A stretch of DNA of 64,000 nucleotides from Lichenihabitans psoromatis. GTDB lineage: Bacteria; Pseudomonadota; Alphaproteobacteria; Rhizobiales; Beijerinckiaceae. Positions 36,115 through 57,319 of this stretch are shown here, in pieces (the stretch's first letter is position 1; each line of letters begins with the position of its first letter). The notes beneath the pieces are model-generated. The model was not told the DNA's origin. It ran no database searches and was given only the letters and a program-made list of their open reading frames with translations. The translations under genes were made by a program, and so were the position numbers. The DNA lies in NCBI RefSeq assembly GCF_004323635.1, contig NZ_CP036515.1, positions 2,605,501 through 2,669,500 of the forward strand, written 5' to 3'.

Positions 36115-36167
36115 AAGGAGCTCCATTTCGCTTCGACGACTGTGCAAGAGAGGGGACATCATTGGGC

Positions 36168-42278: not shown

Positions 42279-42323
42279 GGCGTTATCCCTCTGGGTCAAG
42301 TCGGCCGCCAGCGCGCGACGGGA

Positions 42324-42347
42324 GAGGGGCCGGTTGGCCGGCCCCTC
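42324..42347. terminator. GC-rich hairpin between small T3SS protein gene and sctD
   Basis: Ten-base perfect stem GAGGGGCCGG / CCGGCCCCTC around a TTGG loop, in the 130-bp gap after the 67-aa gene and before sctD on the minus strand. No T-run follows, so it may attenuate transcription or stabilise the upstream transcript rather than terminate fully. Confidence 0.45.
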
Positions 42348-42408
42348 GGATGGTGTCGATCGGTGGAGCGCCATCCCGCGCGAAGCGCGAGGCGGCGCCC
42401 CAACGAAA

Positions 42409-42612
42409 TCAGCCGATGTTCGGGCGCTGCTGAGCGGCAGTTTCTTCCGCGCCGTCGATCGTCTTGGCGACCGTGATCTTCATGTTGGTCTCGGTCGCCA
42501 GAGCGAACGCGTCGTTCATCTGCTGGATTTCGGCATCGACCGAAGTCGAACCCGACTGAAGTGCGCCCGAGCTATCGGTTGCGCCGTTACCGCCAACGCT
42601 GCTGCCTGCCAT
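42409..42612 (-). CDS. Small T3SS-associated protein, candidate needle/pilus subunit
   Basis: 67 aa with an excellent ribosome site (AGGAGAATCATC). A Gly/Ser/Thr-rich, signal-free N-terminus (MAGSSVGGNGATDSSG) leads into helices (VDAEIQQMNDAFALATETNMKITVAKTIDGAEET). Size, charge and helix content suit a SctF needle or NopA/Hrp-pilin type subunit, and no other needle gene is seen in the window. Located between the secreted-protein candidate and sctD. I cannot match it to a named family; assignment is by context. Confidence 0.55.
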   Translation of the reverse strand: MAGSSVGGNGATDSSGALQSGSTSVDAEIQQMNDAFALATETNMKITVAKTIDGAEETAAQQRPNIG

Positions 42613-42854: not shown

Positions 42855-44345
42855 TTACGCTTGGTTCTGGTCGGTCTGGCTCTTCGAGTAAGTCGCGGCA
42901 GCCTGGTCGTAATCCGCGAAATTCACCTCTGGGCCTTGGCCGTTGGCATGCGCCAGCATCGCGTTGATCTGCGCGCCCGAGATGCCCATGGCCGGGTTAT
43001 AGGAGGTCGGCACCGCTTGGTCGGCGCCTGCGCCGCCCGTCAACCGCACTTCGGGGCCGGTGCCGTTCGAGACGGCCAGCATCTGGTCGACCTCGGTCTG
43101 GCTAATGCCCTCGCCCGGATTGGTCTTTGGGGTGACCGCATATTGCGTCTCACCACCAACACCAGCGCCTTGCGGCTGCAGCAGGGTGATCAACTGCTTG
43201 ATCAGCGACGCTTCGTCGGCCGGCGCGCCGGTCGAGCCGGCGCCAGATGCGGCGGGCGTTTGCTGAAGCAGCGTGATCAATTGCTTGATCAATCCGGCTT
43301 CATCGGCGCTGGACGCCGCCGTTGTGCCGCCCGACGATTTATCGAGCAGGGAGATGAGTTGCTGGATCAGCGACGTGAGATCGTTCTGGCCGCCAACCGG
43401 CGTCGTCGTGACTGGGGACGCCGCGGCGTCGGTCGTCGGCTTGGCCTCTCCAGTAGCGGAGGTCGAGGTCGGCAGTTGCTGCTGAAGCAACGAAATGAGC
43501 TGCTTGATTAGCGACGCGAGATCGGTGCCGCCGGCACTTGCGGGACCGGCGTCGGCCGCCGTTGTCGCCTCCTTCACCGATGGGATCGTCGAAGTGGCGC
43601 CCTTCGGCTCCTCGGCTGCCTGCGGGCCGTTGCCGGTGCCTGCATTATCGGCCATCGCTTTGCTGTATTGATCGATTGCCTTCGTGCCGGCATTTGAGCC
43701 GAATTCTGCATAACCGCCGCCCATGCCGTCGACGGAATTCTCGTAGGTCTTGCTGTTGAGCTGCGACCCCATCGCATTGACTAACGTGTCGAGGCTTCCG
43801 GCATTGCCGACGTGCAGCACCGTATCGCTGACGTCGTTGAAACCCTGTGCGGAACTCGGACCGCCCTGTTGCACGGAACCGGTTTTCACGCTCGCGCTGC
43901 CGTCGTGAAAGCCGGATTGAATGACGGTTTGGTTGTCCTTGGTGACCGCGACCTGATCGATGTAGGACACGCCGTTGACTTCGGCCGTTTGCTTAAACTG
44001 GACCTCGGTGCCGTCGGATAGCTTGATGGTCAGGCCATCATGCTGGAAGTTGGCTCGATCCCCGGCGCTCGTATAGATGTGGGGGTCGCCATAGACTTCG
44101 ACGAAACTGTTGTTGGTTGTGTCGAAGATCTTGACCATGCCGTCATTGGCATTGCCGCCGCTCGTGGGGCTTCTGTAGCTGGTCGACCCAGTGATGATGT
44201 AGCGACCGGTATCGATTTCGTTGCCATGGACCTGCAGTCCGGCCGAGGCCGCGACATTGAAATCTGCGGCATGCGATGTCGTGTCGGCTCCCGGCATGGA
44301 AGAATTACCTCCGCCAGGCAAAGTCGATCCCACAGTATTTGCCAT
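42855..44345 (-). CDS. Predicted T3SS-secreted protein: self-cleaving MIIA/DUF1521 (NopE-like) domain plus harpin-like repeats
   Basis: 496 aa, no signal peptide, Gly/Ser/Thr-rich. Residues about 40-200 resemble the metal-ion-inducible autocleavage domain of rhizobial NopE1: FVEVYGDPHIYTSAGD, where cleavage would fall between Asp87 and Pro88 of GDPH, then a beta-rich region (DGLTIKLSDGTEVQF). Four repeats of (D/E)xxLIKQLI(S/T)LLQ follow at about 285, 332, 358 and 387, spaced by Ala/Gly/Thr linkers. Two C-terminal repeats GISxxxxxxMLAxxNGxGPEV are at about 423 and 464. Leu-rich LLQ heptads and GIS motifs recall Hpa1-type harpins. Start ATG 44345 after TGGAGAACC. Confidence 0.75.
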   Translation of the reverse strand: MANTVGSTLPGGGNSSMPGADTTSHAADFNVAASAGLQVHGNEIDTGRYIITGSTSYRSPTSGGNANDGMVKIFDTTNNSFVEVYGDPHIYTSAGDRANFQHDGLTIKLSDGTEVQFKQTAEVNGVSYIDQVAVTKDNQTVIQSGFHDGSASVKTGSVQQGGPSSAQGFNDVSDTVLHVGNAGSLDTLVNAMGSQLNSKTYENSVDGMGGGYAEFGSNAGTKAIDQYSKAMADNAGTGNGPQAAEEPKGATSTIPSVKEATTAADAGPASAGGTDLASLIKQLISLLQQQLPTSTSATGEAKPTTDAAASPVTTTPVGGQNDLTSLIQQLISLLDKSSGGTTAASSADEAGLIKQLITLLQQTPAASGAGSTGAPADEASLIKQLITLLQPQGAGVGGETQYAVTPKTNPGEGISQTEVDQMLAVSNGTGPEVRLTGGAGADQAVPTSYNPAMGISGAQINAMLAHANGQGPEVNFADYDQAAATYSKSQTDQNQA

Positions 44346-44544: not shown

Positions 44545-44742
44545 CTAGCCCGGTGCGTCGGGATTGCTCGTATTATCATTGATGGCTTCGGTAATGTCCG
44601 CCTGCGTACTCTGTAGGACAGTGCCCATGAATTTCACGACGCCTTCGGCGAATGCTTGTTGCATATCCGCCGTTGCTTGATCGCTGCCCGGATCCGTTGC
44701 CGCCGCGCTCGTCGATTGTCCGACTGGGGTAACGCCCGTCAT
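44545..44742 (-). CDS. Second small T3SS-associated protein
   Basis: 65 aa with a strong ribosome site (AAGGGAGTTTTAC). Thr/Ser/Ala-rich N-terminus (TPVGQSTSAAATD), then one amphipathic helix (MQQAFAEGVVKFMGTVLQSTQADITEAI) and a short polar tail. No signal peptide. In size and layout it resembles the 67-aa protein on the other side of the secreted-protein gene. Could be a needle/pilus subunit, a small secreted protein or a minor pilin. No named family recognised. Confidence 0.55.
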   Translation of the reverse strand: MTGVTPVGQSTSAAATDPGSDQATADMQQAFAEGVVKFMGTVLQSTQADITEAINDNTSNPDAPG

Positions 44743-45229: not shown

Positions 45230-45832
45230 CTAGGGGAACTGGACGCGACTGGTCGATGTTCCGCGAAAGACCACGAGCGTGTCGCTCGAAGCAGGGCTGT
45301 GTTTTGGCTCTTTATCGGCCGCAACCGCTGTCGCAGCCTGTTGAACCATTGCAAGATATCGGGGAGGTCCTGATACCACCACGATGTTGGTCCCGGGCCC
45401 CGGTCGAAGCCCGTAGCGCAGATCGAGAAGTCCTGCTCCCGAAAGCGCAGAATAGAGCTTCTTGTAACCGGCTCCCTCGACTGTGAGCAATTGAGTCTGG
45501 GCTTCAGACGCTGCGCTGATCGAGATGACTGCGCCATCGTAATACCAATCGAGACCAAATTCCTGGGTTAGACGATTGAGAAACTCTCGCGGCGGGAGGC
45601 TGGGCATCCGCCCATGCACCCGCCCCTGAACCGCAGCCGACAGCACCACCCGAAGACCGGTATTGGTACCAAATTGCTCGAGAACTGTTCTGAGATCCTG
45701 ATCCACTACCACGTAATTATAGGCCGCAGGCGGCCAAGCAGGTTCTGCCGCCAAAAGTGTATCGGACATCGCCACGACGAATGAGGTGATCATGCCAGAT
45801 ATCGCGAGACCGATCGTCACCGCTCGCCGCAC
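45230..45832 (-). CDS. T3SS secretin N-terminal-domain protein (SctC N0/N1 only; RhcC1/NolW-like)
   Basis: 200 aa: signal peptide (AVTIGLAISGMITSFVVAM...LLA-AEP), then the secretin N0 domain (YNYVVVDQDLRTVLEQFGTNTGLRVVLSAAVQGRVHGRMPSLPPREFLNRLTQEFGLDWYYDG in order) and an N1-like segment (GAGLLDLRYGLRPGPGTNIVVVSGPPRYL), ending at a clean stop. No secretin barrel domain is present. This matches rhizobia, where SctC is split and the short part is RhcC1/NolW. It is divergent from sctI, the same arrangement as nolW and nolB. Confidence 0.82.
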   Translation of the reverse strand: MRRAVTIGLAISGMITSFVVAMSDTLLAAEPAWPPAAYNYVVVDQDLRTVLEQFGTNTGLRVVLSAAVQGRVHGRMPSLPPREFLNRLTQEFGLDWYYDGAVISISAASEAQTQLLTVEGAGYKKLYSALSGAGLLDLRYGLRPGPGTNIVVVSGPPRYLAMVQQAATAVAADKEPKHSPASSDTLVVFRGTSTSRVQFP

Positions 45833-46161
45833 GATTCGATGCTCCAGGGTTACGAACAGTTAACGTTCGACCACATATCTCCAATGCGATCAAGTCTAAA
45901 ACGATGATGAGTCGAGATGCGCTCGATCTCTGATGAAAATGATAGTCACTTCGATGTCATAAAAGTGATAAAAACGCATTTGTAAGAAGATCGATGATAC
46001 AAGATGTCGCCTTTGCTATTGGATTTGAGCCAACTCACTTGCCGTCTGAGCGTCTGCACGATAGGTATGCTCACGGTCACTCGCATTCAACGCGTGAACG
46101 GCGGGCCGCAGCGAGGGCCGGCGGCCGTCACGCGAGCTTTCCGACCAAGCGGAGCACCATC
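45833..46161. promoter_or_regulatory. 329-bp divergent T3SS promoter region
   Basis: Separates the SctC N-domain gene (minus) from sctI (plus). It is AT-rich in the middle (about 45895-45990). Features: TCACTT-N11-AAGTGA inverted repeat (45946-45968) and, within it, TGTCATAA (45954-45961), an octamer that recurs upstream of the cpaC-like gene and in the 45.1-kb region. No gene is supported here; I could not identify a clear tts box or HrpL box by eye. Confidence 0.5.
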
Positions 46162-46623
46162 ATGATTGAGGCTATCGCCGCGGTGCAGCAGCTTGCGGCC
46201 GCCAAAGACCCCGTTCCTGCGGGTGTGCAAAGCGTCGATGTTTCGTCCCAGGCGGTGCAGCGGCCCAATGCAACCGAGGCTGCAGACTTTGCCGAGGCGG
46301 CTGGTCGAACGGCGCACGAGGTCCCGGCTGCAGCGCCATCCTCGACCGACAGTCTCGCAACCCGCCTTGCACATCAGGCCGATGCCATGGCGAGCCGCCT
46401 GAAGATTCCGGAAGGGTTTGGTCAGGCCGCTAAAACCACGCAGCCTGAAGCTCCTGTCGCAGCGAACGACAGCATGCATACGCCCGGCTTCGACAAAGAG
46501 AACATGACCGCGGCCGTCTCACAGATGGAGCGCGCCTACATGTTCGCGATCGAGACCACCATGGCGAGCCGCGGCTCGACCGAATCGACCAAGATCTTCA
46601 ATACGCTTCTCAAGGGGCAGTGA
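46162..46623 (+). CDS. sctI: T3SS inner rod protein SctI-like (NolB position)
   Basis: 153 aa. Ala/Val/Pro-rich first 110 residues, then a C-terminal amphipathic helix region MTAAVSQMERAYMFAIETTMASRGSTES leading to the terminal TLLKGQ, characteristic of the YscI/HrpB/NolB inner-rod family. ATG 46162 follows GCGGAGCACC; the frame is open upstream without homology. First gene of the export operon; its stop overlaps the sctJ start (TGATG). Confidence 0.82.
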   Translation: MIEAIAAVQQLAAAKDPVPAGVQSVDVSSQAVQRPNATEAADFAEAAGRTAHEVPAAAPSSTDSLATRLAHQADAMASRLKIPEGFGQAAKTTQPEAPVAANDSMHTPGFDKENMTAAVSQMERAYMFAIETTMASRGSTESTKIFNTLLKGQ

Positions 46624-47375
46624 TGATCTGCGCGCGGGCGACCGCGAAAGGCGGCGCGGCCCTGGTTCTCATGCTGCTTCTCTCCGCCTGCCAGACGGAG
46701 CTTTACACCGCCGTCCCCGAGCAGGAGGCGAACGAGATGTTGGCGTTGCTGCTGCGAGGCGGCGTGAGTGCCTCGAAAGTGCAGGCGAAAGATGGGTCGG
46801 ACACGCTGATGGTCGAGCAGACCCAGTTCGCTGCGGCGGTCGATATGCTGCATACCGGCGGCTACCCCCGCGCGAAGTTCAGCACCATCAACGATGTGTT
46901 CCAGCCCAGCGGATTGATCGCGTCCCCGGTGCAGGAGCAGGCGCGTTTCATCTGGGCTCTGGGCCAGGAATTATCCCGCACGGTTTCGCAGATCGATGGA
47001 GTGTTGACCGCACGGGTTCAGGTGGTGCTGCCAGACAATGATTTGCTGAAGCGAGAGCCCACGCCATCCTCTGCGTCGGTTTTCATCCGCTACGATGAAG
47101 CAAGCCGCGTCGCGAGCCTCGTGTCGCAGATCAAGATGCTGGTGGCCAATAGCGTGCAGGGGCTCAACTACGACAAGGTCTCGGTCGTGCTCGTGCCTGT
47201 TCCGCACGTCGATCTGCCGGTGCGATTGGCGACCCCGACGCCCGATTGGCAAGGGCCGGCGCTGATCGGCGGTAGTGTGGTCGCCGTTCTGGTTGCGTCT
47301 CTTCTGCTCTTCCGCCGCCGCCTTCTCGCGTTGCTCGCCACCACCAAGCCGCCGCTGCCGGACCCGGCCGAATGA
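46623..47375 (+). CDS. sctJ: T3SS inner-membrane ring lipoprotein SctJ (NolT/RhcJ/YscJ)
   Basis: 250 aa: signal peptide with lipobox LLSACQ, then ELYTAVPEQEANEMLALLLRGGV, the YscJ/FliF ring-building motif SRTVSQIDGVLTARVQVVLP, SASVFIRYDEAS and IKMLVANSVQGLNYDKVSVVLVP, and a C-terminal membrane helix (ALIGGSVVAVLVASLLLF). Overlaps sctK by 4 bp. Forms the periplasmic face of the basal body. Confidence 0.95.
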   Translation: MICARATAKGGAALVLMLLLSACQTELYTAVPEQEANEMLALLLRGGVSASKVQAKDGSDTLMVEQTQFAAAVDMLHTGGYPRAKFSTINDVFQPSGLIASPVQEQARFIWALGQELSRTVSQIDGVLTARVQVVLPDNDLLKREPTPSSASVFIRYDEASRVASLVSQIKMLVANSVQGLNYDKVSVVLVPVPHVDLPVRLATPTPDWQGPALIGGSVVAVLVASLLLFRRRLLALLATTKPPLPDPAE

Positions 47376-47926
47376 GCGAGATCGCCTTGCTGCAGGCCGC
47401 CTCTCCCGATCGCATTGCCGCACTCATCGGCCATGGCGCATCGTCCAATCTGGTGACAAGACTGCTCCGTTCGACGCGCCTTCGCGCTCGCCTCGCGGAG
47501 GTCGTCAGCGCCAGGCTGGGGCTGGTCGGCTCGATGACGCCTGTTCAAGCCGCCATTCTCGATCTGTCGGAAGTTGGCCTTTCGACGCTCGCGCGGCGCG
47601 CGGGCGCCATCTGGCATGGCCGTGCCATTGCGCGCGCGATCGATGCGTCGGATCGACGGGCGCTCGTCGCGACACTTGGCACCAGTCTCTACGGTCAGGC
47701 GCTTCGCGGGATTGCGCTGTCGCCGGAGCTTCCGGGCGACCTTCAGGGTCCCGAGGCTCTCGATGTTGCGGTTGCGACGGATGGCGCCGCTTGCCTCGAA
47801 GCTTGGCGTTTGGCGCAGCCGCCAGGCGTCGCACTGCGGGTGGGGCTGTTGCGCGCGACTGTGCTGGTTGAGGCTTTACACCGGGAGCGGGGTCCGAGCA
47901 TCGTTGCGTGGCTGGTGCAAGCGTGA
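47372..47926 (+). CDS. sctK: T3SS accessory protein SctK-like (NolU position)
   Basis: 184 aa, cytoplasmic and helical. Contains LARRAGAIWHGRAIARAIDASDRRALVATLG, a segment reminiscent of YscK/HrpD/NolU sorting-platform proteins. The position between sctJ and sctL supports the call (nolT-nolU-nolV in rhizobia). Sequence conservation in this family is low, so the identification relies on context as much as motif. ATGA overlap with sctJ and GTGA overlap with sctL. Confidence 0.75.
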   Translation: MSEIALLQAASPDRIAALIGHGASSNLVTRLLRSTRLRARLAEVVSARLGLVGSMTPVQAAILDLSEVGLSTLARRAGAIWHGRAIARAIDASDRRALVATLGTSLYGQALRGIALSPELPGDLQGPEALDVAVATDGAACLEAWRLAQPPGVALRVGLLRATVLVEALHRERGPSIVAWLVQA

Positions 47927-48579
47927 TCGCCGAGGAACTACCGGCGTCGCGTTTCGTCATCCGAGGCGATGTCATGCGCGCGCATGGCGATGCGAAAACG
48001 ATCCTGGCCGAAGCTGAGGCGGCCGCCGCCCGTCTTCGCGGCTCTGTCGAAACCGAGCGGCGGGAGGCGATCGAGGCGGCTCGCCGAGAGGGTTTGCGGC
48101 AGGGGCTCGCCGATGCGGCCCTATTGGCCAGCCAAGCCGCGATCGCGATCGACACATTCTGGCGCGAGCAACGAGCGCAGATGCACGAGGTGGCGCTCGC
48201 GGTCGCGCATCGCATTCTCTCCAGCTTGCCGGAGCCGGAAATCCTCGCGCGCCTCGCTGGCGAGGCGATCGACGACTATGGGCGGGACGTGCGAATCACC
48301 TTTCGCACAGCGCCGGAGGAGGCCACCGCGCTACGGGCCGCCTTGCAGGATCATGGCAACCGCATCGTCGTGTTGGCCGATGTGACCGCGAAGCCGGGCG
48401 AGTGCACTTTGGTGCATCCGCGCGGTCGGAGCGAGATCGGCCTGCTGGCACAATTTCGATCGATGCTGGATGGGCTCTCAACCCATCAGGACGGACGATC
48501 GCCCGATCGGGATCACCTCTCGGCCGATCGAGACGTCGGTTCAGTGAGACCCGAGATCGACGCGGGCATCGAAACATGA
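47923..48579 (+). CDS. sctL: T3SS ATPase regulator SctL (NolV/YscL/FliH family)
   Basis: 218 aa, GTG start overlapping the sctK stop. Early coiled coil ([38 protein letters not shown]) typical of FliH/YscL stators, followed by the C-terminal domain ([47 protein letters not shown]). The last 40 residues are Asp/Arg-rich. Links the ATPase to the cytoplasmic sorting platform. Confidence 0.87.
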
Positions 48580-49907
48580 GCGTGGGGAGGTTGGCCGATG
48601 GGCTGGATCGCCTTGGCGTGCAGGTGCGGGAGCTTCAAGCGCGTCCGGAGCGGGGCCGCATCGTGCGGGCGGTCGGCACGGTCTTGCGTGCCGTTCTGCC
48701 CGAAGCGCGCCTTGGCGAATTGTGCCGAGTGCACGATCGAGGCCGCCCCGAACCCCTGATGGCCGAGGTGGTCGGCCTCGATGGTGACGAAGCGATCCTC
48801 GCGCCCATTGGCGATATGCTCGGCCTCGCATCCGGCGCAGAGGTCGAGCGGACCGGCGATGTGCTGCGGGTGCCGGTCGGCGATGCCGTGCTGGGCCGCG
48901 TCGTCGATGGCCTTGGCCGTCCGCTGGACGTCGCGGCCAGGGGGCCTCTCGCTCCGGGTCCAAGTCGGCCGGTGCAAGCCGCGCCGCCTCCGGCGCTGGA
49001 GCGCCGGCTCGTCGAGACCGTCCTGCCGCTCGGCGTGCGTGCCATCGATGCGCTGTTGACCTGCGCCGAAGGACAGAGGCTCGGCATCTATGGCGAGCCG
49101 GGCGGCGGTAAATCGACGCTTCTCGCCTCGCTGGTGCGCGGGGCCGCCGTTGATGTCGTGGTCGTGGCGCTGATTGGTGAGCGCGGCCGCGAGGTTCGCG
49201 ATTTTATCGAGCGGCAGCTCGACCCGGAGACCCGGGCCCGGGCGGTTCTGGTGGTCGCCACCTCAGACCGGCCGGCCGTGGAACGCCTGAAAGCGAGCTA
49301 CACCGCAACCACGATCGCGGAAGAATTTCGCGATCGGGGGCGGCGTGTGCTGCTGGTGATGGACAGCGTGACGCGCTTCGCCCGTGCCTTGCGCGAGATC
49401 GGCCTCGCGGCTGGCGAACCCCCCACCAGACGCGGCTTCCCGCCGTCCGTCATGGCCGAATTGCCACGGTTGATGGAGCGTGCCGGGCCGGCCGCCACCG
49501 GCTCCATCACGGCCCTCTATACGGTGCTGGTCGAAGGCGACGGCGCCGGCGATCCGGTCGCCGAGGAAACCCGAGCGATTCTCGATGGACATATCATCCT
49601 GTCGCCCAGCCTCGCGGCATCTGGTCATTATCCGGCCATCGACGTTCTCACGAGCCGCAGCCGCGTCATGGATGCGGTCATCTCGGCTGATCATCGCAAA
49701 CGGGCCGCTGCCATCCGCGATGTGCTGCAACGCTACAACGACATCGAATTCTTGGTTCAGGTCGGCGAATTTAAGATCGGCTCCGACCCGCGCAACGATG
49801 CGGCGCTAGCCGGGATCGAGGCCGTTCGAGAGTTTCTACGCCAAGGATCGACGGATCAATCCTCGTGGGAGGAGACCCAGGCTTGGCTGTCACGGCTGAC
49901 GAGTTGA
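48576..49907 (+). CDS. sctN: T3SS ATPase SctN (RhcN/HrcN/YscN)
   Basis: 443 aa F1-like ATPase: Walker [30 protein letters not shown], Walker [16 protein letters not shown], the [25 protein letters not shown] segment, [27 protein letters not shown] and SRSRVMD. The N-terminal beta-barrel begins near [19 protein letters not shown] 48576 overlaps the sctL stop; the longer open frame upstream is not used. Unfolds and dissociates substrates from chaperones at the export gate. Confidence 0.96.
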
Positions 49908-50386
49908 AGGCGCGTCGCGCCGCTTTGCTGCTGCGATGTCAGCACATTCGAGACGATCGCCGCCGCCGCGAGGTCGCCCATGCGGAGGGACTGCGCCACG
50001 ATGCAGCATCCAGGCTCCGGCAGACGCACCAGGATCTCATGGCGCACGAGGACGTGCGGTCGCGTGAGATCGGTCAGCAGCATGATCGATTGGCCGGCCA
50101 AATCATCGATCTGCGAGCCCTAACCAGCATCCAGGCCGGCGAGGCAGCCTCGTTGGCGCGGTCGGCCGATCTCGCGGCCCAGCGCCTCGCCGCCAGTGCG
50201 GCGTTAAGCGAGGCCGAGGCGGGGCTGAACCAGGCGCGGTTGGCCTTGCAGATGGAAGCCCGGATCACCCAGAAGCGGGAACGGCTTGCCGATACCATGG
50301 CCAAGGCGTGGCGTCGCGCCGCCGACATCGCCGACGAGATGGATCGCAGCGATCAGGCAGCCGACCTCTGGCGTGCATCGACTTGA
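49883..50386 (+). CDS. sctO: T3SS stalk protein SctO-like (YscO/Y4yJ position)
   Basis: About 167 aa, almost wholly coiled coil and Arg/Ala/Gln-rich ([32 protein letters not shown] to [22 protein letters not shown]), as expected for the YscO/FliJ stalk that inserts in the ATPase ring. Start: TTG 49883 has GGAGGAG nine bases upstream; a GTG at 49865 is also in frame. Overlaps sctN by about 25 bp. Sequence identity is poorly conserved in this family, so context carries the call. Confidence 0.75.
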
Positions 50387-51402
50387 CGGCCCGCCCGCTC
50401 GTCCTTCCGACGATCAGCCGAGCGGAGGCGCTCGCCTCCCGCAAGCGATTCGCACCGCGCTCGGCGGTCACGCTCGCTGGCTTGCTCAAATTGTCGATCG
50501 ATCGCGCGCCGACCGGCGATTGCGGTCCGGACCAGATGCGCGTCGGCGTTTCGTGGGGGACCGATCGTCTGGAGGTTCGCTGCCCGTCGGCTTTACCGCA
50601 GCAGATCCTTCGGGCGCTGGATCCCGCGATCGAAAGCGATGCTTTGCCGTCCGATCTCGCGGGTCTTCTGCTCGAGGCGGCCCTGTTGCCGACCATGTCG
50701 GTGTGGGAGCGAGCGGCCGGTCGCGACGTCGCAATCCTCGGCGCGGAGCGGGAGGGCTCGGCCCCGCCACCTGGCGGTTTGAGGCTGAAACTCGAGGACG
50801 ATACCGCCTCCTGGCGGCTGCATGTCGGGTCGGAGCGCGAAGACATCGTCGATGCCGTGCTCGAGGCTTGGCCGATCGAACCGCGCCCCATGGCCACTTT
50901 CGCGGTGCCGGCAGTGCTGCGGGTCGGCACGACGCGGCTGCCCGTTGCGGTGCTGGCATCCTTGCGGCCGGGCGATGCCGTGATCCTCGAGCGGAAGCCC
51001 GCGACGGGCGTGACATTGGTGATTGCCGATGCTTTTGCGGCGGATGTCACGGCTCAGGATGGCCGTTGGCGGGTGGTCGAGGCTATGCGGTCGGTGCTCG
51101 ACGCCGCCGCCGGACAGGAGGGGACGATGCAGGAACTCAAAACCGACCCGAATGGCACGGAGACGACGCCTGTCGTGGAGCCGGACGATATTCAGGTGCA
51201 ACTCTCGTTCGAGGTCGGGCGGCTCGACATCACGCTCGGCGAACTGCGTCGTCTCGGCCCCGGCATGGTGCTCGATATCGCGCGTGATGCGGTCGAACTC
51301 GTCCGCATCAGCGCCCATGGGCGGCCGATCGGGCAGGGCGAACTCGTCGATGTCGAGGGGGCCGTCGCGGTGCGGATCGTTCGCCTGTTCGATCATGGGT
51401 GA
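50383..51402 (+). CDS. sctQ: T3SS cytoplasmic ring protein SctQ (RhcQ/HrcQ/YscQ)
   Basis: 339 aa if started at the TTG at 50383, which overlaps the sctO stop (TTGA); no good ATG is available and the frame is open upstream. The C-terminal SpoA/FliN domain is clear (IQVQLSFEVGRLDITLGELRRLGPGMVLDI...ISAHGRPIGQGELVDVEGAVAVRIVRLFDHG region), preceded by a second SpoA-like region (LPVAVLASLRPGDAVILE). Builds the sorting platform. Overlaps sctR by 8 bp. Confidence 0.87.
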   Translation: MTARPLVLPTISRAEALASRKRFAPRSAVTLAGLLKLSIDRAPTGDCGPDQMRVGVSWGTDRLEVRCPSALPQQILRALDPAIESDALPSDLAGLLLEAALLPTMSVWERAAGRDVAILGAEREGSAPPPGGLRLKLEDDTASWRLHVGSEREDIVDAVLEAWPIEPRPMATFAVPAVLRVGTTRLPVAVLASLRPGDAVILERKPATGVTLVIADAFAADVTAQDGRWRVVEAMRSVLDAAAGQEGTMQELKTDPNGTETTPVVEPDDIQVQLSFEVGRLDITLGELRRLGPGMVLDIARDAVELVRISAHGRPIGQGELVDVEGAVAVRIVRLFDHG

Positions 51403-52051
51403 AGCTCAACCCAATCTCCTCGGTATTCTGATCGCCATCACGGCGCTCGGGACGCTCACGTTCGTGGCCGTTACGATGACGAGCTTCATCAAGATCTCGG
51501 TGATCCTGTTCATTCTCCGCAACGCCCTGGGTGTGCAGCAGACGCCGCCCAATCTCGTCCTCTATGGCATCGCCCTGCTGCTGACCGGCTATGTGATGGC
51601 TCCGGTCGGCGCCAAGGTCTATGCCGAGATCGCGGCGCCGGGGCAGCATTACGAGAGCTTTAGCGATTTCGGCGCGATCGCAAGCCGTGCCGAAGTGCCG
51701 GCCAAGGATTTCATGCTGCGCTTCGTCAGCCCTGGCGAGCGTGAATTCTTCACAGCCGCGGCGGTGCGGGTTTGGGGACCCGACTCAGGACTGACGGCCC
51801 AGCCGGACGACCTGATCATCGTCGTGCCGGCCTTCGTGCTGTCCGAATTGCGTCGTGCCTTCGAGGCCGGCTTTCTGATCTACCTGCCGTTCATCGCCGT
51901 CGATCTCGTCACCACGGCGGTCCTGATGGCGATGGGCATGTCGGCCGTCTCGCCCACCACGATCTCGGTGCCGTTCAAACTGTTTCTCTTCGTCGCGATC
52001 GAGGGATGGACGCGGCTGATGCACGGGCTCGTGCTCGGCTACGCGACCTAG
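51395..52051 (+). CDS. sctR: T3SS export gate protein SctR (RhcR/FliP family)
   Basis: 218 aa. MTSFIKISVILFILRNALGVQQTPPNLVLYGIALLLT, DDLIIVVPAFVLSELRRAFEAGFLIYLPFIAVDLV and VLMAMGMSAVSPTTISVPFKLFLFV, in that order, are diagnostic. ATG 51395 chosen; the upstream frame is a shadow in sctQ. Core of the membrane export gate with SctS and SctT. Confidence 0.97.
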   Translation: MGEAQPNLLGILIAITALGTLTFVAVTMTSFIKISVILFILRNALGVQQTPPNLVLYGIALLLTGYVMAPVGAKVYAEIAAPGQHYESFSDFGAIASRAEVPAKDFMLRFVSPGEREFFTAAAVRVWGPDSGLTAQPDDLIIVVPAFVLSELRRAFEAGFLIYLPFIAVDLVTTAVLMAMGMSAVSPTTISVPFKLFLFVAIEGWTRLMHGLVLGYAT

Positions 52052-52058
52052 CCGCCGC

Positions 52059-52328
52059 ATGGGCCATAACGACCTCATCGTTCAGCTGCAGGCGATGCTC
52101 GGCATTGTCCTCATCATGTCGCTGCCGCCCTTATTGGCCGCGATGGCGGTGGGGCTGATCGTCGGCATTCTGCAAGCCGTGACGCAGATCCAGGACCAAT
52201 CGCTTCCGGTCGCATTCAAGCTGCTGGTCGTGATCGTGATCCTGGCCCTGGCCGGACCCATGCTGGTGCAGCCGCTTGTCCGCCTGTCGGGCCAGTTGTT
52301 CGACAGCTTTCCGGCGATGACGCGGTGA
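52059..52328 (+). CDS. sctS: T3SS export gate protein SctS (RhcS/FliQ family)
   Basis: 89 aa, two membrane segments: MLGIVLIMSLPPLLAAMAVGLIVGILQAVTQIQDQSLPVAFKLLVVIVILALAGP in outline, with the conserved QIQDQ(S/T)LP loop. Seven bases after sctR; overlaps sctT by 4 bp. Confidence 0.96.
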   Translation: MGHNDLIVQLQAMLGIVLIMSLPPLLAAMAVGLIVGILQAVTQIQDQSLPVAFKLLVVIVILALAGPMLVQPLVRLSGQLFDSFPAMTR

Positions 52329-53140
52329 GCACCGCCTCCGGCTTCGAGGTCGTCTGGCATTGGCTGCTGGCCTATGGCATCGCTCTGGCGCGCCCCATGG
52401 CCATGCTGGCCCTCAACCCCGTCTTCACCCGCGCCCAGATCACCGGCCTCCTTCGCGGCGCCGTCGCCTCCGCGCTGGCGCTTCCGATGGTGCCGGTCTT
52501 GGTCATGGCGATGCAGTCCGAGCCCGCCAATCCGATCGGGTTGATGCTGCTCGCCGCCAAAGAGGCCATCATCGGGGCGGCGCTCGGCCTGCTGCTCGGG
52601 GCACCATTCTGGGCGCTCGACGTCGCGGGCGATATTCTCGATGCCCAGCGCGGTGCAACGCAGGGCCGGCTGAACGATCCGGCTGGCTTCGAGGACGTGT
52701 CGATCGCCGGGACGATGCTGATCATCACCGGTATCGCGTTATTCGTCATGACCGGCGGTCTCGAGTCGTTAGCCGATCTTCTCTACGGCAGTTGGGCGAT
52801 CTGGCGTCCGCTCGGCGCTTTCCCGCATGTCGACGATCGTACGCCCGTGTTGCTGCTCGGGTTGCTGGACCGCATAACCCGTCAAGGCTTGCTGGTCGCG
52901 GTCCCGGTCGTGCTCGCCATGTTGCTGGCCGATGCGGCACTGCTGCTGGTCGCCCGCATGGCACCGCAGCTGCGAATCGACGATCTTGCGCTGTCGGTCC
53001 GCAACATCGTCTTTTTCATCGTCATGCCGCTCTACGTCATGTTCCTTATGACTTACATGCGGCAGGATTTTGCGACCTTGCCGGCTCTTCTCGATCTGAT
53101 GCGGGACGCCACCACGCCGCTCGGCGCGCCCACGCCATGA
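52325..53140 (+). CDS. sctT: T3SS export gate protein SctT (RhcT/FliR family)
   Basis: 271 aa, about six membrane segments. ARPMAMLALNPVFTRAQITGLLRGAVASALALP near the N-terminus, LGAPFWALDVAGDILDAQRGAT (the family's GD..D.QRG motif), and LVAVPVVLAMLLADAALLLVARMAPQL. The GTG start overlaps sctS and the stop overlaps sctU (ATGA). Confidence 0.95.
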   Translation: MSTASGFEVVWHWLLAYGIALARPMAMLALNPVFTRAQITGLLRGAVASALALPMVPVLVMAMQSEPANPIGLMLLAAKEAIIGAALGLLLGAPFWALDVAGDILDAQRGATQGRLNDPAGFEDVSIAGTMLIITGIALFVMTGGLESLADLLYGSWAIWRPLGAFPHVDDRTPVLLLGLLDRITRQGLLVAVPVVLAMLLADAALLLVARMAPQLRIDDLALSVRNIVFFIVMPLYVMFLMTYMRQDFATLPALLDLMRDATTPLGAPTP

Positions 53141-54177
53141 GCGGGCAGGACAGCAGCGAGGAAAAAACCCTCCCGCCGTCGGCCAAGAAGCTTCGCGACG
53201 CGCGCAAGAAGGGGCAGATCGCCCGCAGCAAGGAGTTGGTGACGGCCGCCGTCACGATCACGGCGTTCTTCTATCTCGGGGTGCGCTGCGTTCTTCTTTT
53301 CGGCCAATTGCTCGATGGACTTCGCGTTCTCCCGGCGCTTCTCGACCGGCCTTTCGACGAAGCCGTGGCAGCGCTGTCCGATAGGCTCGCCGGAAACGTC
53401 CTGTGGGCCATCGCGCCTTTTATCGGCTTGATCGTCATGGCGGCCGTTCTGACCAACGTCATCGTCAATGGCGGTGCTCTGGCGGCTTTCGATCCGATTC
53501 TGCCCAAGATGGAGCATCTCGATCCGATCGCCGGCTTCAAACGCATGTTCGGGATGAAGAACCTCGTCGAGGTCTTGAAGTCCATCGTCAAGCTTGCGGC
53601 GCTCGGCGGCGTGTCGCTTTATATCATTGCGGGCGCCTTGCAGGCTCTGGTCGAACTCCCAACCTGCGGCTTGCGCTGCGTCGGCCCGACCATGCTGGGT
53701 CTCTTGCAACCGCTGCTGGTGGTCACCGCGGCTTTCTTTCTCTTGGTGGGGCTGTTCGATATCGGCCTGCAGCGCTGGCTGTTCCAGCGCGACATGCGAA
53801 TGACGACCTCCGAGCAGAAGCGGGAGCGCAAGGAAAGCGACGGCGACCCCCTGATCCAGCGCAAGATCCGGGAGGATCGCCGCAGCAGCATGGCGCTGAA
53901 AACCGGATTGCGGAACGCCACTTTCATTATCCGATCGGCCGATATGTGTCTGGCCATGCGGTTCGCCGCGCCGGACGCCATGGTGCCGGTGCTGGTCGCG
54001 CGTGGCACGCAGGAGGGCGCCTTGGCGTTGCTCGAAGAGGCTAAGACGTTCGACCTTCCTGTGGTGTTCGATCCTGTCGCCGTCGCGGTCGCGTCCCGGC
54101 TGCAGGTCGGCCGGATGATCACGCAGGAAATGTTTCAGCCGGTGATCGGCTGTATGCGCGCCGCCGGGCTGATTTGA
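53137..54177 (+). CDS. sctU: T3SS export switch protein SctU (RhcU/FlhB family) lacking the NPTH motif
   Basis: 346 aa. N-terminus SSEEKTLPPSAKKLRDARKKGQIARSKEL, four membrane segments, DPILPKMEHLDPIAGFKRMFGMKNLVEVLKS, and the linker DMRMTTSEQKRERKESDGDPLIQRKIR. The C-terminal domain continues to FDPVAVAVASRLQVGRMITQEMFQPV. Where other members have NPTH, cleaved between Asn and Pro, this protein has RSAD at residues 266-269 (codons CGA TCG GCC GAT). Frame is intact on both sides. Switches substrate class in typical systems; here autocleavage should not occur. Confidence 0.95.
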   Translation: MSGQDSSEEKTLPPSAKKLRDARKKGQIARSKELVTAAVTITAFFYLGVRCVLLFGQLLDGLRVLPALLDRPFDEAVAALSDRLAGNVLWAIAPFIGLIVMAAVLTNVIVNGGALAAFDPILPKMEHLDPIAGFKRMFGMKNLVEVLKSIVKLAALGGVSLYIIAGALQALVELPTCGLRCVGPTMLGLLQPLLVVTAAFFLLVGLFDIGLQRWLFQRDMRMTTSEQKRERKESDGDPLIQRKIREDRRSSMALKTGLRNATFIIRSADMCLAMRFAAPDAMVPVLVARGTQEGALALLEEAKTFDLPVVFDPVAVAVASRLQVGRMITQEMFQPVIGCMRAAGLI

Positions 54178-54938
54178 TGCTCGTCAATGCTTTGTCACAA
54201 AAGCTTGTCGCCTCTATGCGAGACGGTCGCTTCGCTGCGGCTTCGGTCATGACGCGACACAGAACAGAATGGACCCGCTTGCCTCGTTGCATCACCCCGA
54301 CCCGCTTGGCGCGAGCGACCTCTCTTCTGTCGGCGCTTCTGTCGATGGGGCTTTGTCTCGCCGGCTGCGCCGCGCTGCAGGACCCCGAGGTGTCGCGACA
54401 GGAGACCGTCGCCAACGATCCCGCCGCGATGTTGAGAATCGCCGATGCGGCGCAGAAAGCCGGTGAGGTCGATGGCGCCGTCGCGTTCTATCGCCGTGCG
54501 GCGGACCTTCAGCCCGGCTCGGGGACGGCCCAGATCGGGCTGGCGCGCGCGCAGGTCGACCAGGGCGACGTCGAGCAGGCGCTTGCGACTCTCGACGCCG
54601 CGCATAAGCGCATGCCAGCCGATGCTCACGTCACGGCCACGCTGGGCAAGCTCCTGGTGGCGGCCCATCGACCTGCGGACGCGCTTGCGGTTTTCCGTGA
54701 TGGCTTGCAGCAGGATCCGCATGCGGTGCCGCTGCTAATCGGGCAGGGCGTTACGCTCGACAAGGCGGGTCAGCACGCCGAGGCGCAACAGTCCTACCGG
54801 CTCGCCCTTCAGGTGGAGCCCGGTAATGCTGCGGCTCAGACGGATCTGGCGCTGTCCGAAACTCTTGCGGCCGGCCGTACGGCGCCGACCGTGAAATCCC
54901 GCGTCTCTCGGGCCTCAGGCGCCACCGCCGTCGATTGA
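54177..54938 (+). CDS. TPR lipoprotein (TadD/Y4yS-like), last gene of the T3SS operon
   Basis: 253 aa from the ATG overlapping the sctU stop (TGATG); an ATG at 54249 would give a more typical leader. Signal and lipobox (SMGLCLAGC) are followed by about four TPR units (AQKAGEVDGAVAFYRRAADLQPGSG, ARAQVDQGDVEQALATLDAAHKRMP, GKLLVAAHRPADALAVFRDGLQQDP, GVTLDKAGQHAEAQQSYRLALQVEPGN). Such lipoproteins serve as pilotins or assembly factors for Tad secretins, and a TPR protein (Y4yS) is linked to rhizobial T3SS. Convergent with the CpaD-like gene, 18 bp away. Confidence 0.85.
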   Translation: MLVNALSQKLVASMRDGRFAAASVMTRHRTEWTRLPRCITPTRLARATSLLSALLSMGLCLAGCAALQDPEVSRQETVANDPAAMLRIADAAQKAGEVDGAVAFYRRAADLQPGSGTAQIGLARAQVDQGDVEQALATLDAAHKRMPADAHVTATLGKLLVAAHRPADALAVFRDGLQQDPHAVPLLIGQGVTLDKAGQHAEAQQSYRLALQVEPGNAAAQTDLALSETLAAGRTAPTVKSRVSRASGATAVD

Positions 54939-54956
54939 GACGCCGTCAGTGTTGTT

Positions 54957-55688
54957 TCAGGGTGTCGTGACGGTTGCGGCCGGTGTCGCGATCGTGTTGC
55001 CGGTGGAGGCGGCGGTGCTGGTTGTCGGTGCCGCAGCGGAGGTCGATCCACCGGACGCCGACCCACCCCCAGCATCGGGCGATGCGCCGGTCGTGTCGAC
55101 CGAGGGTTCACCCGTCCGGCGATTGGCCCGCCAGGACGTGACGCCAGCCGCCAGATAGGCACCATCCGAAGGGGCGAGGCGCGGCGGTGCGACGAGGTCG
55201 GCGGGGTCGACCAGCATGGCCGCGAGATTGCTGCTTTGGGTGCAGGTCGCAAGGCTCATCAAGCTCGGCAAAGGATCGCCACCGAACGCCGGTGTGATCG
55301 CGTCGGCGCAATCCGGCGTGCCCGCGACAGCACGGGTCAGCAACACCGAGGCCTCGCGCGCTGGCGGCGGCGGAGCGGTCGCCGTAATGCGGGAGGGGTC
55401 GATGCCGTTGCCGACCAGCGCACGGCGGAGGGTCTCGGCTTCTCGCGCGCTGCTCGCCACGATATGGGCCCGAACGGCTTGTCGCTCGCCATCCGAGACG
55501 ACGGCAATGTCATGCTTCAGGCGGGCACGCCACGCGAGGCGGCCGTTGGGTTGATGCGGCGCAAACACGAGCTCGCGATTGACGCTCGCCAACAAAACCG
55601 GTGGCGAACGACCAAGGTCGGCGGCCTCGTTGGTGCAGCCGGCCAGCAGGGCCGACAGGCTGAAAGCCGCGATCGATGCGCGCATCAT
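54957..55688 (-). CDS. CpaD-like pilus/secretin-associated lipoprotein
   Basis: 243 aa: lipobox LLAGC, then RLKHDIAVVSDGERQAVRAHIVASSAREAETLRRALVGNGIDPSRIT, a CpaD-family OmpA-like segment, PDCADAITPAFGG and a CTQSSNLAAMLVDPADLVAPPRL motif that closely follows CpaD. The C-terminal 45 residues are a Ser/Thr/Ala/Gly-rich tail. ATGA overlap with the secretin gene upstream means the two are co-translated. In Tad systems CpaD is an outer-membrane partner of CpaC; here it is beside a T3SS with no Tad genes in view. Confidence 0.85.
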   Translation of the reverse strand: MMRASIAAFSLSALLAGCTNEAADLGRSPPVLLASVNRELVFAPHQPNGRLAWRARLKHDIAVVSDGERQAVRAHIVASSAREAETLRRALVGNGIDPSRITATAPPPPAREASVLLTRAVAGTPDCADAITPAFGGDPLPSLMSLATCTQSSNLAAMLVDPADLVAPPRLAPSDGAYLAAGVTSWRANRRTGEPSVDTTGASPDAGGGSASGGSTSAAAPTTSTAASTGNTIATPAATVTTP

Positions 55689-57139
55689 TGAAACACGAAT
55701 CCCATGTTTTCGGGTTGCGGCGGCGGCGCGCGGCGCGCGAGACCGACAGCACGCCGAGTCGGGGCCGCGACGCGCCCATACACCACTTCTTCCTCGTCGG
55801 ACGGCACGCGGACGTAGCGGCTCGCATCGCCCGGCGGATTACCGGGGCCGGTCGGACGCACGACATAAGGCGTCACGACGATCACGAGTTCGCTCTGGTT
55901 GCGCTGGAATTGGTTCGAGCGGAACAAGCCGCCGAGGATCGGGATATCGCCAAGCCAGGGCAGCTTCTGGATCGAATTGTTGTTGTTGTTCTGGATCAGC
56001 CCGGCGATGGCGAAGCTCTGGCCGCTGGCCAATTCCACCGTGGTTTCGGCGCGGCGCGTCGTCAACGCCGGCACCTGCACGTTGTTGAGCGTCACGGTGT
56101 TGGTGAGATCAAGTGCACTCACCTCGGGCCGCACCTTCACACTGATGTGGCCGCTCGACAGAACCGTCGGCGTAAAGGCGACGCTGACGCCATATTGCTT
56201 ATATTCGACCGACACCGCCCCGAGCGCCTGGGGGATCGGGATCGGAAATTCGCCGCCGGCCAGAAAGGTGGCCGTGGTGCCCGACACGGCCGTGAGGTTG
56301 GGTTCGGCCAACAGCGTCACCAGCCCCTCGGCCGCCATAGCGTCGAGCACGGCCGAGCCATTGGCATGTTTGGACGCAACGGTGCCGAAGACGCCGTTGA
56401 CACCGTTGGCGATCAGATTGGCTCCCGTCGCGCCTGCCAACCGGCCGGTTTGCAGTCCGAAGGCGAAGTCACCGGCCGAGAACACCGTCGACCAGTTGAA
56501 GCCGAGTTGACGCGAGACTGTACGGCTCACTTCGGCGACCCGAACCCGAAGATTGACCTGCGGCGACCCGGCGACTTGGAGCTGGTTGGTTAAAGGGACG
56601 CCCGCTCCGAGTGTGCGGGTCGCGGTCTGCTGCAGCCGTTCCGCCGTCTGCGGGTCGGGGACCGTTCCCTGCAGCATCGCGCCGTTGGGCGTATAGGTCA
56701 GCCGTGTTGCAGCATCGCCCGCATCGGCGTTCATCTGCGCCTGAAGCTCGCCTTGCGGAAAGCGCACGTCGATCATGTAGGCCAGCAGCGGCGCGCCATC
56801 CTGAGACAAGACGAAAAGCGTGGTGCGTCCGGGTTTCTTGCCGAAGACAAAGATACTGGATGCTTTTGGACTCTGGATGTCGGCGATGGTGGGGTCCGCC
56901 ACGAACTCGGTTCCGGCGGCCTCCGGCAAACGCAGAAGTTGGCCGCCCGAGACATCGATATGAATCGTACGGCTCGCGGTCACGGTGCTGGGAGGGGCGG
57001 CGGCTTGCGCGAGCGCCGCTGCAGGAGCGGTTGCGGCCAAAACCAGCATGGCCAGAAGGGCGAGCAGATATCGAGCGATAGTCTGTTCACGTCTTCCGCG
57101 CTCAAGAGGCTTGATGTCGATCGTCCGAACATGTCGCAT
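55685..57139 (-). CDS. CpaC/RcpA-type secretin, candidate outer-membrane channel of the T3SS (RhcC2-like)
   Basis: 484 aa: signal peptide (YLLALLAMLVLAATAPAAALA), pilus-type N domain (TIHIDVSGGQLLRLPEAAGTEFVADPTIADIQ, VFGKKPGRTTLFVLSQDG), a BON-like part, then the secretin domain (VNLRVRVAEVSRTVSRQLGFNW, LAEPNLTAVSGTTATFLAGGEFPIPIPQ, TTVELASGQSFAIAGLIQNN, LPWLGDIPILGGLFRS, ELVIVVTPYVVRP). ATG 57139 preferred over TTG 57148. The C-terminal 45 residues are Arg/Pro-rich. Nothing else in the window can serve as the T3SS outer-membrane ring. Confidence 0.9.
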   Translation of the reverse strand: MRHVRTIDIKPLERGRREQTIARYLLALLAMLVLAATAPAAALAQAAAPPSTVTASRTIHIDVSGGQLLRLPEAAGTEFVADPTIADIQSPKASSIFVFGKKPGRTTLFVLSQDGAPLLAYMIDVRFPQGELQAQMNADAGDAATRLTYTPNGAMLQGTVPDPQTAERLQQTATRTLGAGVPLTNQLQVAGSPQVNLRVRVAEVSRTVSRQLGFNWSTVFSAGDFAFGLQTGRLAGATGANLIANGVNGVFGTVASKHANGSAVLDAMAAEGLVTLLAEPNLTAVSGTTATFLAGGEFPIPIPQALGAVSVEYKQYGVSVAFTPTVLSSGHISVKVRPEVSALDLTNTVTLNNVQVPALTTRRAETTVELASGQSFAIAGLIQNNNNNSIQKLPWLGDIPILGGLFRSNQFQRNQSELVIVVTPYVVRPTGPGNPPGDASRYVRVPSDEEEVVYGRVAAPTRRAVGLARRAPPPQPENMGFVFQ

Positions 57140-57319
57140 CTCGCTCAACTACAGCAAGCGAACGCAGTTTGGCTCGGACTTTTTGGCGCTCGGCGGCAAT
57201 CCGTGAAATTTTGAGAGTATCGGTGGTCGGTGAGCCACAAACACCGAGTATCGTGCCGCGCGAAACTGCTCCGCTGGTGCGGGACAACGACAATAAAACG
57301 CAATTGGCTTACGGGAATG

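What the first reader, a model, noticed from the sequence alone, without database searches (positions are those of the whole stretch)
45230..57139. T3SS with a split secretin: N-domain-only SctC plus a Tad-type CpaC/CpaD pair
The complete export operon sctI-U is divergent from a 200-aa protein holding only SctC N0/N1-type domains. The only full secretin in the window is a CpaC-type protein overlapping a CpaD-like lipoprotein, convergent with the operon's terminal TPR lipoprotein. No Tad motor, prepilin or CpaB/E/F gene is present. Rhizobial Rhc systems are known to split SctC into RhcC1 and RhcC2, and I recall proposals that T3SS recruited secretins more than once. Inference: the outer-membrane ring here is a Tad-derived CpaC/CpaD/TPR module, with the N0 domain supplied by a separate protein. 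The retained CpaD partner is the most unusual part.
Basis: partly seen in the sequence, partly recalled or inferred. Interest (0 to 1): 0.75.

Follow-up and report, generated by a model that had tools for sequence, protein, structure and literature searches.

The report
Rhizobial-type injection system, borrowed pilus ring
A bacterium related to lichen dwellers carries the rhizobial kind of protein-injection machine, whose outer-membrane ring is built from parts taken from a pilus machine; this arrangement is already known in rhizobia, and the new point is that one pilus lipoprotein travels with the ring in nearly every such machine we examined.

Summary
The window carries a rhizobial-type (Rhc) T3SS: a 200-aa RhcC1/NolW-type protein with SctC N0/N1 domains only, a divergent sctI-U operon, and a CpaC-type secretin overlapping a CpaD lipoprotein, convergent with a Y4yS-like TPR lipoprotein. 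It is the only secretin found in the genome; CpaB is not found and both secretion ATPases are conjugative. The closest named relative is Lichenihabitans.

The core is published: RhcC1 is a T3SS secretin remnant, RhcC2 is Tad-derived (Abby & Rocha 2012); Y4yS was proposed to act like TadD (Mercante 2015).

New here: in 14 of 14 Rhc-II-type loci read, the gene after rhcC2 is a short lipoprotein keeping only CpaD's C-terminal domain. With wide Tad sampling, Rhc-I RhcC2 nests inside Tad CpaC, apart from Rhc-II RhcC2 (0 of 200 bootstrap trees unite them), but an AU test does not reject one origin (p 0.42). Best reading: a Tad outer-membrane module, not only its secretin, was grafted onto the T3SS through RhcC1.

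The parts
32470..36162 (-). HrpF/HrpK1-type translocator candidate, 1230 aa
   Evidence: PF16937, E 1.1e-26; 30-31% identical to its neighbour over 579-701 aligned columns
36168..39377 (-). HrpF/HrpK1-type translocator candidate, 1069 aa
   Evidence: PF16937, E 3.8e-72
39433..41385 (-). SctV (RhcV) export gate
   Evidence: PF00771, E 3.8e-183; start taken from the internal ATG
41385..42374 (-). SctD (Y4yQ-type inner ring)
   Evidence: PF23893 Y4YQ_C E 2.9e-17; SctD 62 bits, below its cut-off of 86; 25% identical to NGR234 Y4yQ
42409..42612 (-). 67-aa needle-subunit candidate (SctF/NopA-like)
   Evidence: weak match, E 3e-4, to a small ORF just before SctD in NGR234b; position; role inferred
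42855..44345 (-). DUF1521-type protein, candidate secreted protein
   Evidence: PF07481 E 3.7e-4, 21.0 bits, below its cut-off of 23.6
44545..44742 (-). 65-aa small secreted protein candidate (NopC-like)
   Evidence: E 0.011 to a small ORF in G035; position only; uncertain
45230..45832 (-). RhcC1/NolW: SctC N0 and N1 domains only
46162..46623 (+). SctI (NolB-like) inner rod candidate
   Evidence: no family match; position; weak matches in 3 other Rhc regions, 19-30 bits; start inferred
46620..47375 (+). SctJ inner-ring lipoprotein
   Evidence: PF01514 E 2.7e-26
47372..47926 (+). SctK (NolU)
   Evidence: YscK E 0.023, below cut-off; position and matches in other Rhc regions
47908..48579 (+). 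SctL (NolV) stator
   Evidence: TIGR02499 62.5 bits, cut-off 78.7
48576..49907 (+). SctN ATPase (start inferred; longest ORF begins at 48402)
   Evidence: PF00006 272 bits, PF18269 68.8 bits
49865..50386 (+). SctO stalk
   Evidence: PF07321 E 0.0013, below cut-off; position
50308..51402 (+). SctQ
   Evidence: TIGR02551 111.9 bits, over cut-off
51395..52051 (+). SctR
   Evidence: PF00813 204 bits
52059..52328 (+). SctS
   Evidence: PF01313 68.6 bits
52325..53140 (+). SctT
   Evidence: PF01311 133.6 bits
53137..54177 (+). SctU
   Evidence: PF01312 235.7 bits
54174..54938 (+). Y4yS/TadD-like TPR lipoprotein, putative pilotin
   Evidence: TPR repeats; 32% identical to NGR234 Y4yS, E 1e-10; lipobox LAGC read by eye
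54957..55688 (-). CpaD (Y4xK-type) lipoprotein, putative secretin partner
55685..57148 (-). RhcC2: Tad (CpaC)-type secretin, the only secretin found in the genome
   Evidence: 45% identical to NGR234 RhcC2; trees

Best explanation
This is an Rhc-type non-flagellar T3SS of a Lichenihabitans-like bacterium, on a deep branch of the Rhc-I side. RhcC1 keeps the N0/N1 rings that dock on SctD/SctJ; the outer-membrane channel is a Tad module: RhcC2 (CpaC) forms the pore, the CpaD lipoprotein girdles and anchors it, and the TPR lipoprotein pilots it. The CpaC-CpaD gene pair was taken from a Tad locus as a unit. CpaD's C-terminal domain is the part kept in nearly every RhcC2-bearing T3SS examined, so it is probably the secretin-binding part, and the N-terminal OmpA-like domain (cell-wall anchoring) was dropped in Rhc-II. 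Shown here: gene content, adjacency, homology, and that no CpaB, CpaF-type ATPase, second CpaD or second secretin was found in the genome. Inferred: docking, girdling, piloting, joint transfer, which domain binds.
For: One secretin and one CpaD in the genome, no CpaB, secretion ATPases TrbB and VirB11 only. RhcC1 model matches EscC/InvG N0-N1. Rhc-I RhcC2, the window's included, nests inside Tad CpaC next to a Tad locus with CpaC-CpaD-CpaE-CpaF (98/83 with L221). CpaD lies directly after RhcC2 in 28 of 28 named loci that show RhcC2 and in 18 of 20 places that show it in the 397-genome order sample: 8 full-length, 10 short; many of these are near relatives of one another. Short forms match CpaD's C-terminal end: PF09476 is the top Pfam hit for 5 of 5 tested, E 1e-5 to 6e-5, below the curated cut-off; profile comparison E 4e-6, against 0.37 reversed and 0.16 for the highest-probability of 30 column shuffles. 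Published: a y4yS mutant has lower RhcC2 levels (PMC4311626, passages); CpaC-CpaD is the outer-membrane module of the Caulobacter Tad machine (PMC13170226, passages).
Against: No binding was tested. Two of 20 places (G126b, G007) have RhcC2 followed directly by RhcC1, without CpaD between. The CpaD tree does not resolve its donor, and the window's CpaD and the rhizobial CpaD did not group together in the best tree (one group in 38% of bootstrap trees), so joint transfer is not shown by CpaD itself. In Caulobacter the TadD-like CpaO is dispensable (PMC13170226), which weakens the pilotin analogy. A close RhcC2-CpaD pair in the sister genome G401 has no T3SS gene within the 17.7 kb read on one side and 3.5 kb (contig end) on the other.
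Confidence: 0.85

Rival explanations
1. The CpaC/CpaD pair is the remnant of a lost Tad pilus or serves some other export, and only lies beside the T3SS by chance.
For: Five sister genomes carry Tad loci, so the window's genome may have lost one; G401 has a close RhcC2-CpaD pair with no T3SS gene nearby, besides its Tad locus.
Against: The window's secretin groups with T3SS RhcC2 (98/80 and 100/90), and the CpaC of four sister Tad loci match it far less (E 1e-45 to 1e-51) than the G401 pair does (E 3.5e-226); CpaD is next to RhcC2 in 28 of 28 named T3SS loci that show it (these loci were chosen by their RhcC1); it is the only secretin found for a T3SS with its core genes present.
Confidence: 0.07
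2. Sub-question within the best explanation: the Tad outer-membrane module was recruited once, before Rhc-I and Rhc-II split, and CpaD was shortened later in Rhc-II.
For: AU tests do not reject one clade (p 0.191; p 0.418); the tree with Tad from the order alone puts all T3SS RhcC2 on one side, 100/100; published view (PMC3459982, passages); CpaD form follows the SctV tree, 93/95.
Against: With Tad sampled across class and phylum, 0 of 200 bootstrap trees unite Rhc-I and Rhc-II RhcC2 (the quick 86-row tree agrees).
Confidence: 0.5
3. RhcC2 alone spans the outer membrane and touches SctD; RhcC1 is a regulatory or vestigial leftover.
For: R. etli keeps RhcC1 without RhcC2 (PMC3574062, passages), so RhcC1 can persist without a partner.
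Against: Its N0/N1 fold is intact in the model and 15 columns are invariant across 28 rows. The T3SS loci here were mostly found through RhcC1, so its presence in them is no evidence.
Confidence: 0.08

Closest known systems
Rhc-I T3SS of Sinorhizobium fredii NGR234 (pNGR234a) and Mesorhizobium loti
   Same: RhcC1/NolW divergent from nolB-rhcU; RhcC2 followed directly by CpaD (Y4xK) in NGR234; Y4yS TPR lipoprotein; Y4yQ-type SctD (PMC4311626, PMC3973906 passages)
   Different: In the window RhcC2-CpaD and the TPR gene sit at the end of the operon; no TtsI homologue found in the window; HrpK1/HrpF-type translocators and no NopX match; deep branch
Rhc-II T3SS of NGR234 (pNGR234b)
   Same: RhcC1 plus Tad-type RhcC2 plus TPR protein
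   Different: CpaD cut down to its C-terminal domain
Caulobacter Tad pilus outer-membrane module CpaC-CpaD
   Same: Secretin with CpaD encoded directly downstream (PMC13170226, passages)
   Different: Here no CpaB and no CpaF-type ATPase was found, and the pair lies in an injectisome locus

Membership tests
Rhc-type T3SS | SctC split into RhcC1 (N0/N1) and RhcC2 | tested here: met
   one secretin in the genome
Rhc-type T3SS | RhcC2 of Tad CpaC type | tested here: met
   PF13629 N domain; RcpA best PDB match; nested in Tad CpaC
Rhc-type T3SS | Core proteins group with Rhc systems | tested here: met
   SctV tree: window on the Rhc-I side, 93/95 (not starred), with G190 97/95; no Hrp, Ysc or SPI outgroups were in that tree
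Rhc-I subgroup (strict) | y4xK (CpaD) after rhcC2, and a y4yS gene | tested here: met
Rhc-I subgroup (strict) | ttsI beside rhcC2 | tested here: not met
   NGR234 TtsI finds nothing in the window ORFs at E 1e-3; rest of genome not searched
Rhc-I subgroup (strict) | tts boxes | not tested
   -
Tad pilus locus | CpaF-type ATPase | tested here: not met
   two T2SSE matches in the genome: TrbB and VirB11, both over their NCBIfam cut-offs
Tad pilus locus | CpaB/RcpC | tested here: not met
   0 matches at E 1e-3
Tad pilus locus | Flp prepilin, CpaE | not tested
   not searched genome-wide
CpaD family (Rhc-II short lipoproteins) | C-terminal CpaD domain with the two conserved Cys and the GC-NL-M-DL motif | tested here: met
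   Pfam scores below the cut-off
CpaD family (Rhc-II short lipoproteins) | N-terminal CpaD domain | tested here: not met
   matches cover only the C-terminal end of the profiles; proteins too short
TadD pilotin | Descent of the TPR lipoprotein from TadD | not tested
   no tree made; proposed for Y4yS in PMC4311626 (passages)

The most novel reading that the evidence does not exclude
T3SSs took the Tad outer-membrane module (secretin plus CpaD) as a unit on two separate occasions, once for Rhc-I and once for Rhc-II, and CpaD's C-terminal domain is a core but unrecognised T3SS component, the minimal secretin collar, which in Rhc-II was stripped of its cell-wall anchor.
Probability: 0.35. Interest if true: 0.62.

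Novelty: new member of a known kind. Interest (0 to 1): 0.42.

Why it matters
It gives a clean case, a genome in which this is the only secretin found, for how a T3SS base can be coupled to an outer-membrane ring from another machine. If CpaD is a core T3SS part, a gene annotated as pilus assembly in rhizobial symbiosis loci becomes testable as a secretion component, and the short Rhc-II form points to the part that binds the secretin. It also bears on how many times T3SSs recruited secretins.

Tried and rejected
Considered and dropped: a Tad locus elsewhere in the genome (no CpaB, no CpaF-type ATPase, no second CpaD or secretin found). Donor tree from CpaD: unresolved. One-clade test of T3SS RhcC2: not rejected, so two origins are not claimed as shown. 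tblastn of the window CpaD against plasmids found only Azospirillum CpaD, 6 records, and missed Y4xK; the link to Y4xK came from annotation, pairwise comparison and Pfam. A single short CpaD as query found 2 of 337 class genomes, both with CpaC and a CpaE-like gene beside CpaD, so Tad. I first thought that Tad and the Rhc-type pair exclude each other in the genus; checking G401 showed both there, so that idea is withdrawn. Rfam found nothing in the window at gathering scores. The C-terminal part of the CpaD model (residues 124-191) was barely covered by the structure comparison. The orphan RhcC2-CpaD pair in G401 stays unexplained.

Rows dropped before counts: the wide CpaC trees left out G126b and G007 (long branches; kept) and every second order-level Tad row. 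One search dropped 26 of those 86 rows (near-duplicates, Paracoccus). One search was hand-picked: the 17 T3SS rows, 3 new T3SS rows, 15 of the 60 phylum loci, 26 earlier Tad rows. The CpaD tree left out two of eight short forms, G198 and G150. The SctV tree left out G375, whose gene is split between two frames. Of the 79 named loci (the best 80 of 106 matches), 51 show no RhcC2 and are outside the 28 of 28; 17 of those 51 show CpaD at the edge. Names such as CpaE in the scripts rest on a P-loop motif read by eye; CpaF on similarity to TrbB or to the ATPase of L262.
Full report

THE GENOME. The window lies in a 4.84 Mb assembly of 3 contigs, estimated completeness 98.2. It has one secretin, one CpaD and no CpaB/RcpC. 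Two secretion ATPases match T2SSE; NCBIfam names them TrbB (447.6 bits, cut-off 304.6), beside TrbE, and VirB11 (375.7, cut-off 250), between VirB10 and VirD4. Prepilin and CpaE were not searched. So the secretin serves the T3SS unless something lies in the unassembled part. The closest named protein is NolW of Lichenihabitans sp. PAMC28606, 96% identical. In the genus sample, RhcC1 is found in 1 of 6 genomes, the window's own. Four of the other five (G397-G400) carry a Tad CpaC-CpaD-CpaE locus. The fifth, G401, carries a CpaC with CpaE-like and CpaF-like neighbours and a short CpaD-like frame (C335), and also a RhcC2-CpaD pair close to the window's, with no T3SS gene within the 17.7 kb read on one side and 3.5 kb, to the contig end, on the other. 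So the window's genome is the one of six without a Tad locus.

WHAT IS KNOWN. Abby and Rocha 2012 (PMC3459982, passages) concluded that RhcC1 is a T3SS secretin remnant and RhcC2 is Tad-derived, and suggested RhcC1 as a linker to SctD. Mercante 2015 (PMC4311626, passages) found lower RhcC2 levels without the TPR lipoprotein Y4yS, likened it to TadD, and noted a CpaD homologue, mlr8762, in the M. loti cluster. The commentary PMC4500985 (whole text) restates the Tad origin. Tampakaki 2014 (PMC3973906, passages) lists ttsI, rhcC2 and y4xK, a putative lipoprotein, together. In NGR234 the gene after rhcC2 is annotated CpaD family; that it is y4xK follows from the named order. Its product scores 64.5 bits to PF09476. 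The 2026 Caulobacter study (PMC13170226, passages) makes CpaC-CpaD the outer-membrane module of the Tad machine, with the TadD-like CpaO dispensable.

HOW GENERAL IS CpaD. Named rhizobial loci: 79 fetched, the best 80 of 106 matches to RhcC1; 28 show RhcC2 with room downstream, and 28 of 28 have CpaD next. Order sample: 397 genomes, 23 with RhcC1 at E 1e-8, 26 places. Of the 25 places outside the window, 20 show RhcC2 in the stretches read; 18 of 20 have a CpaD-type lipoprotein next: 8 full-length, 10 short; 2 of 20 (G126b, G007) have RhcC1 next instead; 5 of 25 show no RhcC2 (G167, G372, G188, G385, G023). The profile for the short form was built from 8 loci, 7 of these 10 plus NGR234b; G265, G248 and G309b are independent of it. 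Three Rhc-II-type loci outside the class (G981, G772, G972) also have it, 3 of 3, independent of the profile, and NGR234b has it: 14 of 14 in all, 6 of them outside the profile. These are not independent lineages: several share a genus. Two Paracoccus-type loci (L158, L284) have a near-identical 140-aa lipoprotein with a related motif; the short-form profile gives E 8e-3 for the first and nothing at 1e-3 for the second, so these are not counted.

TREES. With Tad CpaC from the order only, T3SS RhcC2 is one side of the tree, 100/100. With Tad loci across the class and phylum, Rhc-I RhcC2 (10 rows, window included) is 100/90 and sits beside Tad locus L221 (98/83) within Tad CpaC, while Rhc-II RhcC2 (10 rows, 100/100) is elsewhere, its place among Tad unresolved; 0 of 200 bootstrap trees unite them (same; the quick tree agrees). 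The AU test does not reject one clade: p 0.191, and p 0.418 with the second sampling, where the likelihood gap shrank from 21.1 to 4.3. L221 and three other Tad loci of that neighbourhood (L255, L228, L256) have CpaC, CpaD, CpaE-like and CpaF-like genes in order. SctV separates full-length and short CpaD systems at 93/95 and puts the window on the Rhc-I side, with the base of the tree unresolved and long branches flagged. The CpaD tree is too divergent to show a donor.

MECHANISM. Shown: parts, order, homology, and single copies of secretin and CpaD. From established knowledge: SctC N0 rings contact SctD; secretins often need escort lipoproteins. Inferred: RhcC1 forms the lower ring on SctD/SctJ; RhcC2 sits on it in the outer membrane; CpaD binds the barrel through its C-terminal domain and, where present, its OmpA-like domain touches the cell wall; the TPR lipoprotein pilots RhcC2. 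Retention of the C-terminal domain alone in Rhc-II is the argument that this part binds the secretin.

VERDICT. An Rhc T3SS of a known kind, on a deep branch, in a relative of lichen-associated bacteria. The CpaD partner is not unusual but near-universal among the RhcC2-bearing systems examined, which is the more useful result.

Noticed in passing
L331, L332-L333 (G401:C263): A sister genome has an RhcC2-CpaD pair close to the window's, without T3SS genes in the 17.7 kb read on one side and 3.5 kb (contig end) on the other, and no RhcC1 found; remnant, split locus or other use is open.
   Followed up: partly
L326-L329, L334 against the window: Five of six genomes of the genus show a Tad-type locus (G401 also the Rhc-type pair); the window's genome is the one without.
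   Followed up: partly
window 32470-39377: Two very large, related HrpK1/HrpF-type translocator candidates in tandem after SctV.
   Followed up: no
window 42409-42612 and 44545-44742: Small ORFs placed like nopA and nopC; needle candidates with weak similarity only.
   Followed up: partly
G126b, G007 regions (L147-L148, L150-L151): Divergent systems with gene order RhcC2, RhcC1, SctV and no CpaD between them.
   Followed up: no
L285-L289, L291-L293: Loci with CpaC and a CpaE-like gene but no CpaD found by the profiles; the CpaD slot may hold another lipoprotein.
   Followed up: no
L158 23179-23601, L284: Paracoccus-type T3SS with a Tad-type secretin followed by a 140-aa lipoprotein with a CpaD-like motif.
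   Followed up: partly
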